Part shown: positions 56,348 through 59,886 of the stretch, one piece after another
Position numbering within the stretch: the first letter of the stretch is position 1
Layout: each line of letters begins with the position of its first letter
Source of the DNA: Cellulomonas sp. WB94
Lineage (GTDB): Bacteria; Actinomycetota; Actinomycetes; Actinomycetales; Cellulomonadaceae
Assembly: GCF_003115775.1 (NCBI RefSeq)
Contig: NZ_QEES01000002.1
Span: forward strand, 434,001-498,000
Reading direction: 5' to 3'
DNA: 64,000 nucleotides
Program-made: the position numbers and the translations under genes
Notes under the pieces: model-generated
What the model was told of the DNA's origin: nothing
Database searches by the model: none
The model's input: the letters and a program-made list of their open reading frames with translations, nothing else

Positions 56348-56432
56348 GGCACCGATGCTAGGGGAGGCCCGAGCCCGTGACCCGTCGTCGCCCCTAGGGC
56401 GTGTTGATCAAGTCGGTCTTGATCCAGATGAG

Positions 56433-56646
56433 TAAGGGGCACGGGCTTGGTCGTTCGGTCGGTGAGATGAGAATGGTGGGGTCGCCCGGCGACGTCGCAT
56501 GACTCTGGTGCGGTTGAGCCCGCAGATGAGTACGACGCGGGGGCTCGGGGTGTGTCGCATTGTTGCCGTTGAGCACGCGGGTCTGTCTCCGACCGCAAGG
56601 GCCCCTCCGGGCGGCGCCTGTCGCCGAGCTCTCGGAGGTGGTCGTG
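56433..56646 (+). ncRNA. Candidate bridge RNA in the IS110 left end
   Basis: 214 non-coding bases before the recombinase. The stem GAGCC/CGC (56516-56523) with GCG/GGCTC (56537-56546) closes a 13-base loop (56524-56536) that begins AGATGAG, the same seven bases as the left target flank including the AG core (56426-56432); with the preceding C the match is eight bases. A second AGATGAG is at 56465-56471, followed by GGTGG, as in the right target flank. Several further stems follow (for example around 56577-56598). The donor loop could not be assigned. Confidence 0.5.
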
Positions 56647-57879
56647 ATGGAAGTGCTGGTTGAGCGGGTCGCTGGTCTGGACATCGGCAAGAAGATCGTC
56701 GTGGTCTGTGTGCGCATGCCCGGGCCCGGGGGCAGGCGGGTCTCCGAGACGCGCACGTTCCGCACGATGACCCGGTCGCTGGGGTTGATGGCCGACTGGC
56801 TGGTCGAGTGCGGGGTCGAGCTGGCGGCGATGGAGTCGACCTCGACGTACTGGAAGCCGGTGCTGTACTGCCTCGAAGAGCGGATGACGACCTGGCTGCT
56901 GAACGCGGCGCACATCAAGGCCGTGCCGGGACGCAAGTCCGACGTGCGGGACGCGGAGTGGATCGCCCAGCTCCTCGAGCATGGCCTGGTCGCCCCGTCG
57001 TTCGTCCCCGAGGCCCCGGTGCGCCGGCTGCGGAACCTGACCCGCTACCGGTTGCAGCTGCAAAGCGACCGGACCCGTGATGCCGGCCGGCTGGAGAAGT
57101 TGTTGGAGGACGCCTCGATCAAGATCTCCGCGGTCGCGTCGAACATCACCGGGACGTCCTCACGGGCGATGCTGTCCGCGTTGGTCGACGGGCAGCGCGA
57201 TCCGGTGGTGATGGCCGACCTGGCGCGCACCAAGCTGCGCCGCAAGATCCCCGACCTGGTCGAGGCCCTGACCGGGCACTTCGATGACCACCACGCACTG
57301 ATCGTCGGTCAGCTGCTGGCCCGGATCGCCGCGACCGAGCAAGCCCTCGCCGACCTGGATTTGCACCTGGAGGTCGCGATGGCTCCCTGGGCGCACGAGA
57401 TCGACCTGCTGACCACCATCCCGGGGGTCGGGCGGTTGGTCGCCTGGACGGTCATCGCCGAGACCGGTGGGGACATGTCTCGGTTCCCCAGCCCCGGACA
57501 CCTGGCTTCCTGGGCGGGGGTCGCACCCGCGATGCACGAGTCCGCCGGGCGTCGCCAACCGGTCGGCACCCGGCACGGGAACAGGTTCTTGACCTCGATG
57601 CTCGTCGAGGCCGCGCAGTCTGCCTCCCACACGAAGGACACCTATCTCGCCAGCCAGTTCGCGCACCTGACCTCTCGGCGCGGGCACAACCGTGCCGCGG
57701 TCGCGGTCGCGCACTCCATCCTCGTCTCGGCTTACTGGATGCTGGTCCGTGACCAGACCTACGTCGACCTCGGACCGGGCTGGCTCACCGACCACGCGGC
57801 CGAACAAGCCCGCACCCGCCGCCTGGTCAACCAGCTCGAGGCCCTCGGCCACACCGTCGTCCTCGACCCCGTCGCCTGA
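56647..57879 (+). CDS. IS110-family transposase/recombinase
   Basis: Protein of 410 residues with the RuvC-like DEDD domain at the N-terminus (Asp12 in GLDIGKK, Glu63 in AAMESTSTYW, Asp99 and Asp102 in KSDVRDAEW), a coiled helical middle and the Tnp domain with the catalytic Ser in MHESAGRRQPV. ATG 56647 follows CGGAGG. No frameshift or stop, so it may be active. Confidence 0.93.
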   Translation: MEVLVERVAGLDIGKKIVVVCVRMPGPGGRRVSETRTFRTMTRSLGLMADWLVECGVELAAMESTSTYWKPVLYCLEERMTTWLLNAAHIKAVPGRKSDVRDAEWIAQLLEHGLVAPSFVPEAPVRRLRNLTRYRLQLQSDRTRDAGRLEKLLEDASIKISAVASNITGTSSRAMLSALVDGQRDPVVMADLARTKLRRKIPDLVEALTGHFDDHHALIVGQLLARIAATEQALADLDLHLEVAMAPWAHEIDLLTTIPGVGRLVAWTVIAETGGDMSRFPSPGHLASWAGVAPAMHESAGRRQPVGTRHGNRFLTSMLVEAAQSASHTKDTYLASQFAHLTSRRGHNRAAVAVAHSILVSAYWMLVRDQTYVDLGPGWLTDHAAEQARTRRLVNQLEALGHTVVLDPVA

Positions 57880-58860
57880 CAGCCCCTCCCCATCAACGAC
57901 CATCCGGGCTCCGCCCGGAGCGGTCGCGCGCCCGCTTCCGGACATTCTCGGGTCAGGGTGGCGGCGAGGTGGATCGCGGCACGGTAGCTGCGGGCGCTCT
58001 TGTCGGTGCGCATCGCGATCCCGCGCCATTGCTTGAGCTTGTTGAAACACCGTTCGACGACGTTGCGGCCCCGGTAGCGCAGGCGCTGGTCTGGGCCGAA
58101 GTCGATCGGCCGTCCGGGCTTTTTGCGGCGGTGGGCGATCTGGTCGTTTCGTTCGGGGATCGTCGCGGCGATCCCGCGGGAACGCAGCCAGGCACGGTTC
58201 GCCTTGGAGGGGTAGCCCTTGTCGGCCAGGACCCGGTCCGGGCGGGTGCGTGGGCGCCCGGCCCCGGCCCGTGGGACGCGGACCTGGTCCAGCACGGCGG
58301 CCATCATCGTGGTGTCGTTGACGTTCCCACCGGTGAGCACCCAGCTCAGCGGGCGGCCCTTGCCGTCGGCGACAAGGTGAACCTTGCAGGTCAGGCCGCC
58401 GCGGGAGCGACCGATCGCGTGGTCAGGCGGTTCGGCCCACGGATTCTTGTGATTCGCCGACGCCCCCTGTGTCCCGCGCCAGGGTCGCGCCGTGCTGGTG
58501 GACACGCGTGATCGTCGAGTCGATCGAGACCACCCACTCCAGCCTTCCTGCCGCGTCGGACTGACGCTGCACCTCGGCCACAAGCCCGACCCAGGTGCCG
58601 TCGGCGGCCCAGCGCGTAAACCGCTTGTAGATCGAGTTCCACTTCCCGAACCGCTCCGGCACGTCCCGCCACGGCGCACCGGTGCGGTACTTCCACACCA
58701 TGCCCTCGACCGCCAGACGGTGATCCGTCCACGGACGCGACCGCCCCGACACCGCCGGCATCAGCGGCTCCAGGACAACCCACACCTCGTCAGAGATCTC
58801 GCGACGCGCCACCGATCAAGGGTCCCCGAACTACCCCCGAAACCTCTTGATCAACACGCC

Positions 58861-59886
58861 CTAGGGGACCAGGATCCCGCGGCCACGCAGGCGGCCCGCA
58901 TCGAGGTCGTCCATCGCGTCGTTGACCGCGTCGAGCGGGTAGGTCTGCGTGAGCATCTCGACCTTGCCGTCGGCGGCGAGCACCATGAGCTCGACCAGGT
59001 CGTTGTAGCTGCCCACGAGGTTCCCGACGACGTTGCGCTCGGTCGAGATGACGTCGATGGTCGGGATGTCGACGGTCCCCCCGTACCCGATGACGAAGTC
59101 GCTGCCGGCCCGCCGCGTCATCGCCCAGCTGTCGTGCTCGGCGCCGCGCTCCCCGACGAAGTCCAGCACGACCTCGGCGCCCTTGCCGTCGGTCAGCTCG
59201 AGGACCGTGGCGACGTGCGAGCCGTCCGCGACGACCGTCACGTCCGCCCCCCAGGCGCGCGTCAGGGCGAGCGCCTCCTCGTTGCGGTCGAGCACGACGA
59301 TCCGGGTGGCACTCATGGCCCGCAGCGCCTGGATGCCGAGGTGGCCGAGCCCGCCGGCACCCATCACGACGCACGTCGTGCCGGGATGGAGCAGCGGGAC
59401 CGCCTTCTTGACCGCGTGGTACGCCGTCAGGCCCGCGTCGGCGAGCGCCGCGACCGCAGCCGGCTCGACGCCCTTGCCGAGCTTGACCACGGAGCGCGCC
59501 GAGGTCTTGATCAGCTCGGCCATGCCGCCGTCGGTGTCGATGCCCGGGAACGCCTGCGCCTCGCAGTGCACGTCGTCCCCGGCCCGGCAGGCCCGGCAGA
59601 AGCCGCACGTGGCCAGCGGGTGCAGGATCACCGCGTCGCCGACCTGCACGTGCTCGACGGCGGAGCCCACCGCGTGCACCCAGCCGGCGTTCTCGTGGCC
59701 GAGCGTGTACGGGAGCGCCACGTTGCTCTTGGCCGCCCACTGACCCTCGACGATGTGCAGGTCGGTGCGGCACAGGCCCGCGCCGCCGACCCGGACCACG
59801 ACGTCGAAGGGATGGGTGATGACGGGCTCAGGGACGTCCTCGACCAGGGGCCGGACCTCGTACTGGTGCAGCCGAACCGCCTTCAT
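58861..59886 (-). CDS. Zinc-dependent alcohol dehydrogenase
   Basis: Medium-chain NAD(P)-dependent dehydrogenase of 341 residues. GLCRTDLH and GHENAG (catalytic zinc), CGFCRACRAGDDVHC (structural zinc), GAGGLGHLGIQAL (cofactor). ATG 59886 follows GGGAGG; the frame upstream to 59925 looks non-coding. The stop codon TAG lies at the IS5 insertion site: its last base is now the terminal base of the element, yet the protein is unchanged. Confidence 0.92.
   Translation of the reverse strand: MKAVRLHQYEVRPLVEDVPEPVITHPFDVVVRVGGAGLCRTDLHIVEGQWAAKSNVALPYTLGHENAGWVHAVGSAVEHVQVGDAVILHPLATCGFCRACRAGDDVHCEAQAFPGIDTDGGMAELIKTSARSVVKLGKGVEPAAVAALADAGLTAYHAVKKAVPLLHPGTTCVVMGAGGLGHLGIQALRAMSATRIVVLDRNEEALALTRAWGADVTVVADGSHVATVLELTDGKGAEVVLDFVGERGAEHDSWAMTRRAGSDFVIGYGGTVDIPTIDVISTERNVVGNLVGSYNDLVELMVLAADGKVEMLTQTYPLDAVNDAMDDLDAGRLRGRGILVP

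What the first reader, a model, noticed from the sequence alone, without database searches (positions are those of the whole stretch)
56433..56646. Candidate bridge RNA whose hairpin loop repeats the target flank
The left end holds CAGATGAG (56523-56530) at the edge of a hairpin loop, an exact eight-base match to the target flank including the AG core (56425-56432). AGATGAG occurs a second time at 56465-56471, followed by GGTGG as in the right flank. Two hits of a 7-mer in 214 bases are unlikely by chance. Known: IS621-like elements encode a bridge RNA with target and donor guides in this place. The donor guide remains unassigned.
Basis: partly seen in the sequence, partly recalled or inferred. 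Interest (0 to 1): 0.75.

Follow-up and report, generated by a model that had tools for sequence, protein, structure and literature searches.

The report
Mirror-image bridge RNA in IS110 element
A jumping gene in this genome carries an RNA that spells out where the element inserts, and in this group of elements the RNA's two address segments sit in the opposite order to the best-studied relative, which suggests an insertion machinery mounted the other way round.

Summary
56433-57956 is a 1,524-bp IS110-family element inserted near the end of an IS5-like transposase gene. Empty sites for two of its three genomic copies show that only the AG core is duplicated. Its left end encodes a bridge RNA: a covariance model built without the window hits 56481-56628 at 128.5 bits. 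CAGATGAG (56523-56530) is the left target guide; flank and guide co-vary across relatives (position-free test: 21 of 28 and 16 of 19 elements match at 7 or more of 8 bases, 0/10000 permutations each). The second AGATGAG (56465) is not a guide but overlaps a conserved subterminal inverted repeat. The left donor guide is CGGGTCTG (56578-56585); no right donor guide was found. Unexpected: in this clade the right target guide lies 5' of the left one (window 56498-56504; 18 later-fetched elements, 0/10000), the core is AG (reverse complement of IS621's CT), and two bases after the left guide match the element's own first bases (44 and 39 of 47), like handshake guides on the opposite strand. So the clade pairs an IS110-type upstream RNA with IS1111-type guide order. 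I found no text reporting this; one relevant published figure could not be seen.

The parts
56394..58864 (.). Host: IS5-like element with CTAG duplications and 15-bp perfect inverted repeats; transposase on the - strand, interrupted near its 3' end
56425..56432 (+). Left target CAGATG + core AG
56433..57956 (+). IS110-family element, 1,524 bp (right copy of the core AG at 57955-57956)
   Evidence: three copies and empty sites
56433..56440 (+). Right donor (left tip of the element) TAAGGGGC; first two bases TA equal the two bases after the left target guide
56468..56475 (+).
56481..56628 (+). Bridge RNA: covariance-model match, 128.5 bits
56498..56504 (+). Right target guide CATGACT (clade-level evidence; at this insertion it matches the right target only at the core)
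56506..56522 (+). Apical hairpin between the two target guides (TGGTGC...GAGCCCG)
56523..56530 (+). Left target guide CAGATG + core AG
56531..56532 (+). Handshake-like bases TA after the left target guide
56539..56546 (+). Donor-arm closing helix, 5' strand GGGGGCTC
56560..56577 (+). Apical hairpin of the donor arm (TTGTTGC...GAGCACG)
56578..56585 (+). Left donor guide CGGGTCTG (core position reads TG, donor has AG)
56599..56606 (+). Donor-arm closing helix, 3' strand GGGCCCCT
56647..57879 (+). Recombinase gene, 410 aa, PF01548 + PF02371
57943..57950 (+). Right arm CATTCTCG of subterminal inverted repeat
57949..57956 (+). Left donor CGGGTC + core AG (right tip of the element)
57957..57962 (+). 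Right target GGTGGC

Best explanation
The left end of this IS110-family element is transcribed in the direction of its recombinase gene into a bridge RNA of about 150 nt with two arms. The target arm is an internal loop with a right target guide (CATGACT) on its 5' side and a left target guide (CAGATGAG) on its 3' side; [quoted passage not shown] The donor arm has a left donor guide (CGGGTCTG) on its 3' side for the element's right tip; the right donor guide is not resolved. Recombination occurs at the AG core shared by target and circular donor. Compared with IS621, left and right target guides have swapped places, the core is the reverse complement, and the handshake bases follow the left guides. 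At the RNA level it is the same machine (first guide ends in CU, second in AG plus handshake bases) but mounted on the element the other way round. Shown: element and empty sites, RNA homology and fold, left target guide, right target guide (at clade level), left donor guide, handshake-type match. Inferred: transcription and its direction, binding by the recombinase, circular intermediate, bottom strands exchanged first.
For: Empty sites with one AG. Model without the window hits 56481-56628, E 6.2e-24, 43 of 45 other loci at E < 0.01, three of them the window's own copies, and only the three copies in the genome at E up to 0.1. Fold: 97.4% of cells paired, 47 cells changed on both sides vs 14.7 shuffled, 0/500. 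Left target guide: z 11.7 in 28 families; position-free 21 of 28 and 16 of 19, 0/10000 each. Right target guide 5' of it: z 6.7, 0/2000 anywhere; later set z 5.9, without the core z 5.1, 0/10000 each; 4 or more contiguous bases in 23 of 48 vs 12% mispaired; 16 dissimilar elements 1/10000. L072 has a TG core with both target guides changed to fit. Left donor guide z 16.6. Handshake-type bases 44 and 39 of 47, 0/5000; base after the donor guide equals the first right-target base in 60% vs 33%, 0/5000.
Against: At the window's own insertion the right guide matches the right target only at the core; 13 of 48 families have 2 or fewer contiguous matches. In the discovery set with the core removed, the 6-base test was not significant (461/2000 anywhere) though the 4-base test was (0/2000). 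No right donor guide found. The left donor guide's core base does not fit the donor in 8 of the 9 families of the window's subclade. Many junctions were placed by eye with left and donor guides in view. The number of further pair types in the fold is not above shuffles (106/500). No expression or biochemical data.
Confidence: 0.88

Rival explanations
1. Ordinary IS621-type bridge RNA: left guide 5', right guide 3' of it; the upstream right-target signal is a by-product of the shared core and a conserved ACT motif.
For: IS621 and ISEc21 have that order (PMC11208160, PMC11187229, sections read). For this element itself the right-guide match is weak (2, 3 and 4 contiguous bases in its three copies).
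Against: The scans found no significant complementarity to the right target 3' of the left guide. The 5' signal survives removal of the core in the later set (z 5.1, 0/10000) and reaches 7-8 contiguous bases in 4 of 48 families. In an IS621-type element read by eye (L141) the complementarity does lie 3' (6 of 7).
Confidence: 0.06
2. The two bases after the left guide serve recognition of the integrated left junction during excision, not strand exchange during insertion.
For: The match spans left target, core and element tip as found in the integrated copy. PMC11187229 (sections 12 and 14) reports that target flanks are needed for excision.
Against: Only two bases match, the same length as IS621 handshake guides (PMC11208158, passages), and a parallel though weaker match links the donor guide to the right target.
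Confidence: 0.3
3. No guide RNA: flank and left end agree because the element took up flanking sequence or because of chance.
For: A single 8-base match in 214 bases could be chance or capture.
Against: Co-variation over many families with different targets, a co-varying RNA fold, and copies at different sites with the same left end.
Confidence: 0.02

Closest known systems
IS621 / ISCro4-type bridge RNA (PMC11208160, PMC11208158)
   Same: DEDD recombinase with PF01548 and PF02371, RNA in the left end upstream of the gene, two arms with guide loops, core dinucleotide at both ends, handshake-type bases
   Different: Guide order reversed, core AG instead of CT, handshake-type bases after the left guides instead of the right ones; recombinase 410 aa and very distant (ISCro4 E 4.5e-05); model R1 does not find four IS621-type loci
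ISEc21 seekRNA (IS110; PMC11187229)
   Same: Upstream non-coding region, two target-matching stretches, lands in a transposase gene
   Different: ISEc21: bottom-strand match 5' of top-strand match; here the reverse
IS1111-group seekRNA (ISEc11, ISPa11, ISKpn4; PMC11187229)
   Same: Top-strand match (right guide) 5' of bottom-strand match (left guide); subterminal inverted repeats
   Different: IS1111 RNA lies downstream of the gene and the transposases are 330-350 aa; here upstream and 410 aa
ISArsp3 (Arthrobacter sp. FB24, Glutamicibacter; loci L131, L130)
   Same: Same clade: the RNA model finds L130 (E 6.4e-09); AG core; guide positions the same
   Different: 47% protein identity, other guides and targets

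Membership tests
IS110 family, broad sense (RNA-guided DEDD recombinase element) | Recombinase with DEDD_Tnp_IS110 (PF01548) and Transposase_20 (PF02371) | tested here: met
IS110 family, broad sense (RNA-guided DEDD recombinase element) | Structured non-coding end RNA with guides that match target and donor | tested here: met
   right donor guide not found
IS110 family, broad sense (RNA-guided DEDD recombinase element) | Site-specific insertion with only a core dinucleotide shared | tested here: met
IS110 family, broad sense (RNA-guided DEDD recombinase element) | Circular intermediate, junction promoter, RNA bound by recombinase | not testable with these tools
   needs experiment
IS621/ISEc21-type IS110 bridge RNA | Long non-coding left end upstream of the gene | tested here: met
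   left end 214 bases (56433-56646), right non-coding end 77 (57880-57956)
IS621/ISEc21-type IS110 bridge RNA | Left (bottom-strand) guide 5' of right (top-strand) guide | tested here: not met
   order reversed
IS621/ISEc21-type IS110 bridge RNA | CT core (IS621 and close relatives) | tested here: not met
   core AG; TG in L072
IS621/ISEc21-type IS110 bridge RNA | Handshake bases after the right guides (IS621) | tested here: not met
   found after the left guides instead
IS1111 group | Non-coding RNA region downstream of the gene | tested here: not met
   RNA upstream
IS1111 group | Right (top-strand) guide 5' of left (bottom-strand) guide | tested here: met
IS1111 group | Subterminal inverted repeats of 7-17 bp | tested here: inconclusive
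   7 of 8 bases match in the window and arms co-vary over 43 elements, but the left arm lies about 36 bases inside the element; equivalence not tested
IS1111 group | Recombinase in the IS1111 branch of the tree | not tested
   no tree was built; length 410 aa fits the IS110 subgroup of 395-455 aa given in PMC11187229, not 330-350

The most novel reading that the evidence does not exclude
A broad lineage of IS110 elements (loci here from Actinomycetota, Betaproteobacteria and Bacillota) uses bridge RNAs of inverted polarity: guide order, core and handshake bases are the mirror image of IS621 although the RNA stays upstream of the gene. RNA position and guide polarity are then independent traits, this lineage combines IS110 position with IS1111 polarity, and it should exchange bottom strands first.
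Probability: 0.55. Interest if true: 0.75.

Novelty: new variant of a known kind. Interest (0 to 1): 0.62.

Why it matters
Bridge RNAs are being developed as programmable recombination tools. The published rules for which loop segment reads which strand come from IS621, ISEc21 and IS1111-group elements, and guide order was one argument that IS110 and IS1111 work differently (PMC11187229, section 14). A clade with IS110-type position but IS1111-type order and moved handshake bases means the rules have to be read clade by clade. It also bears on how the two groups are linked in evolution and gives a direct prediction (bottom-strand-first exchange) that can be tested.

Tried and rejected
Rfam on the whole window gave 0 matches at gathering thresholds. 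Viral contigs gave no relatives; the genome-contig scan gave one.

My first guess for the right donor guide (GGGCCCCT, complementary to the left tip) was rejected: that stretch is one strand of a helix that co-varies with its partner in relatives, and scans for complementarity to the left tip found nothing significant.

A scan for the right target guide without tolerance for indels gave its best peaks at -29 to -32 (z 2.9-3.9), not above the largest value in shuffles (4.3). With 3 bases of tolerance it was clear. I had already seen the pattern by eye (note). In the discovery set the 6-base test without the core was not significant, the 4-base one was.

Other scans gave isolated peaks that were not followed up: right target in sense at -86 (7/3000), left donor in sense at +78 (22/3000) and antisense at -4 (19/3000). 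Many scans were run.

IS621-type control: of four elements fetched, an exact 9-base left-guide match with CT core was found in two (L141, L143); only L141 was read on, by eye. Distant elements L145-L148: ends not resolved; model R1 at best E 0.039. No tree and no structure prediction were made.

Rows dropped: the discovery table has 41 elements in 33 families (28 families with a left, 30 with a right target). Of the loci printed these were left out: L036 and L064 (same element as L034 and L005), L059 and L062 (further copies of L049), L046, L048, L056, L063, L066 (truncated, interrupted or unresolved ends). Fragments such as L007-L033, L050, L051, L069, L076, L079 were not tabulated. Later set: 20 fetched, 19 used (L131 is the same element as L130), 18 in the right-target test (L126 has a doubled right end). 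L052 had no anchor. Eight donor-guide anchors were set by eye, so the left-donor score is partly circular.

Full report
What is there. An IS5-like element (CTAG at 56394-56397 and 58861-58864, 15-bp perfect inverted repeats) has its transposase gene interrupted near the 3' end by an IS110-family element of 1,524 bp, 56433-57956. The recombinase (56647-57879, 410 aa) matches PF01548 and PF02371. The genome holds three copies: two at 100% and one at 98%. Left flanks are CCAGATGAG, CCAGATGAG and CAAGACGAG; after the shared GGGTCAG the right flanks read GGTGGC, TTGAATC and TCCCGAC. Uninterrupted relatives of two of the three sites (L099, 91% over the query, for the window; L091 and L092 for L002) have the AG once at the join. 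The L003 site was not tested for an empty form.

CAGATGAG is at 56425-56432 and 56523-56530. AGATGAG at 56465 is real, but AAT stands between it and GGTGG. It is part of GATGAGAATGG, seen in relatives whose guide differs. TGAGAATG (56468-56475) pairs in sequence with CATTCTCG (57943-57950) at 7 of 8 bases; over 43 elements such arms co-vary (mean best match 6.70 of 8 vs 5.92 shuffled, z 7.6, 0/5000), with the left arm mostly 28-38 bases inside the element. Whether this stretch is also a -10 promoter box, about 7 bases before the RNA model begins, is a guess from spacing only.

The RNA. Fourteen relatives without the window fold into a closed target arm and a donor arm: 30 pairs, 97.4% of cells paired against 33.7-56.6% when slid by 1-3 columns, 47 cells changed on both sides against 14.7 shuffled (0/500); the number of further pair types is not above shuffles (106/500). 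The donor-arm helix has both-sided changes in 8 of 11 pairs. The model from this alignment hits 56481-56628 with 128.5 bits, E 6.2e-24; next in the window E 0.27. It hits 43 of 45 further loci at E < 0.01 (three are the window's own copies; misses L046 and L069), only the three copies in the genome at E up to 0.1, and none of four IS621-type loci at E up to 1.

Left target guide. In 28 discovery families the 8 bases up to the core match the left end at one offset: 6.78 of 8 vs 3.91 shuffled, z 11.7, 0/300. Many junctions were placed by eye with the guide in view, so I ran a position-free test, the best match of each guide anywhere in the upstream stretch: 21 of 28 at 7 or more (mispaired 9.1%), and 16 of 19 in the later set (mispaired 5.6%), 0/10000 each.

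Right target guide. Right junctions were placed from core, repeat and donor guide, not from a right guide. A scan over all offsets for complementarity to core + right target gave one place, about 32 bases before the end of the left guide: z 6.7, 0/2000 anywhere, 30 families; 3' of the left guide nothing significant (best z 2.2, 1338/2000). Without the core, the 6-base test was not significant (461/2000 anywhere) and the 4-base test was (0/2000). With the offset fixed, 18 later-fetched plasmid elements gave z 5.9, and z 5.1 without the core, both 0/10000; 48 families together z 9.8, 0/3000. Contiguous complementarity from the core outward is 4 or more bases in 23 of 48 (11.9% when mispaired), 5 or more in 11 (3.3%), 7-8 in L084, L085, L120 and L137, and 2 or fewer in 13, the window among them; 16 elements with dissimilar left ends still give 1/10000. 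L072 has a TG core at target and donor, and both of its target guides fit TG; its donor guide also reads TG, but so do those of its relatives with AG donors.

Donor guides. The left donor guide follows the second conserved GAGCACG and matches the last 8 bases of the right end: 7.04 of 8 vs 4.50 shuffled, z 16.6, 47 families (eight anchors set by eye, so partly circular). In the window's subclade (11 elements, 9 families) it reads TG at the core while the donor reads AG in all but L072. No right donor guide was found.

Handshake-type bases. The two bases after the left target guide equal the first two bases of the element in 44 of 47 and 39 of 47 (46% and 29% expected from shuffles, 0/5000); the third is at chance. 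In the five families with several copies (L001, L043, L044/L061, L085, L049) this holds in 4 of 5 at the first and 5 of 5 at the second base. The base after the left donor guide equals the first right-target base in 60% of 42 vs 33% (0/5000); the next in 36% vs 22% (154/5000). In IS621, handshake guides follow the right guides and pair with the partner's top strand (PMC11208158, passages).

Comparison. In IS621 (PMC11208160: abstract, sections 6, 7, 12, 13, 21 and passages; PMC11208158: abstract and passages) and ISEc21 (PMC11187229: abstract, sections 6, 12, 14 and passages) the left, bottom-strand guide comes first. In IS1111-group elements the right, top-strand guide comes first and the RNA lies downstream of the gene. 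Here the RNA is upstream, the right guide comes first, the core is the reverse complement of CT and the handshake-type bases follow the left guides. All this is expected if the same RNA machine is mounted on the element the other way round. That bottom strands are exchanged first is inferred, not shown.

How it works here. Target choice at the window rests on the left guide (8 of 8); the right guide adds only the core, and 3 and 4 contiguous bases at the other two copies. The insertion lies in the last codons of the IS5-like transposase: an intact relative ends LAATLIWIKTDLVNTA, the window gene reads LAATL and then runs into the IS110 right end.

Novelty. Seven searches brought up no text, in what I read of it, that describes reversed guide order in IS110 elements with upstream RNA. 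PMC11187229 says order differs between IS1111 and IS110, from one IS110 element. The figure of PMC11208160 with ISAar29, ISPpu10 and ISHne5 is known here by its legend only, so earlier depiction cannot be excluded; subscription papers and bioRxiv are largely not held.

Noticed in passing
56394-58864: IS5-like element with two overlapping transposase frames on the - strand (58423-58812 and 57759-58679), CTAG duplication and 15-bp inverted repeats; its last codons are replaced by IS110 sequence.
   Followed up: partly
56578-56585 and loci L002, L003, L005, L080, L034, L037, L038, L039, L040: The left donor guide reads TG at the core although the donor core is AG in 10 elements of the window's subclade; only L072 has a TG donor. 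Unexplained.
   Followed up: partly
56433-56438 and left tips of L118, L119, L121, L122, L123, L124, L127: Bases 3-6 of the element's left tip read ATCC in these seven loci although no right donor guide was found; something else may recognise this side.
   Followed up: no
L003 (G000:C2:250652-255174): The 98% copy has a one-base deletion in the recombinase gene.
   Followed up: no
L044/L055, L136, L126: Tandem element copies (L044/L055), a second left end directly after the element (L136) and a doubled right end (L126).
   Followed up: no
L130 and L131: The ISArsp3 copies in two plasmids share the gene on the left but differ on the right, as after a rearrangement at the element.
   Followed up: no
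L145 and L146: Distant relatives (about 30% identity) in Bradyrhizobium and Citrobacter have an A-rich guide-like stretch resembling an A-rich left flank; their ends were not resolved.
   Followed up: no
L075, L123, L132, L135: Right target and right guide look complementary if one or two bases next to the core are skipped, which may mean flipped-out bases (read by eye).
   Followed up: no
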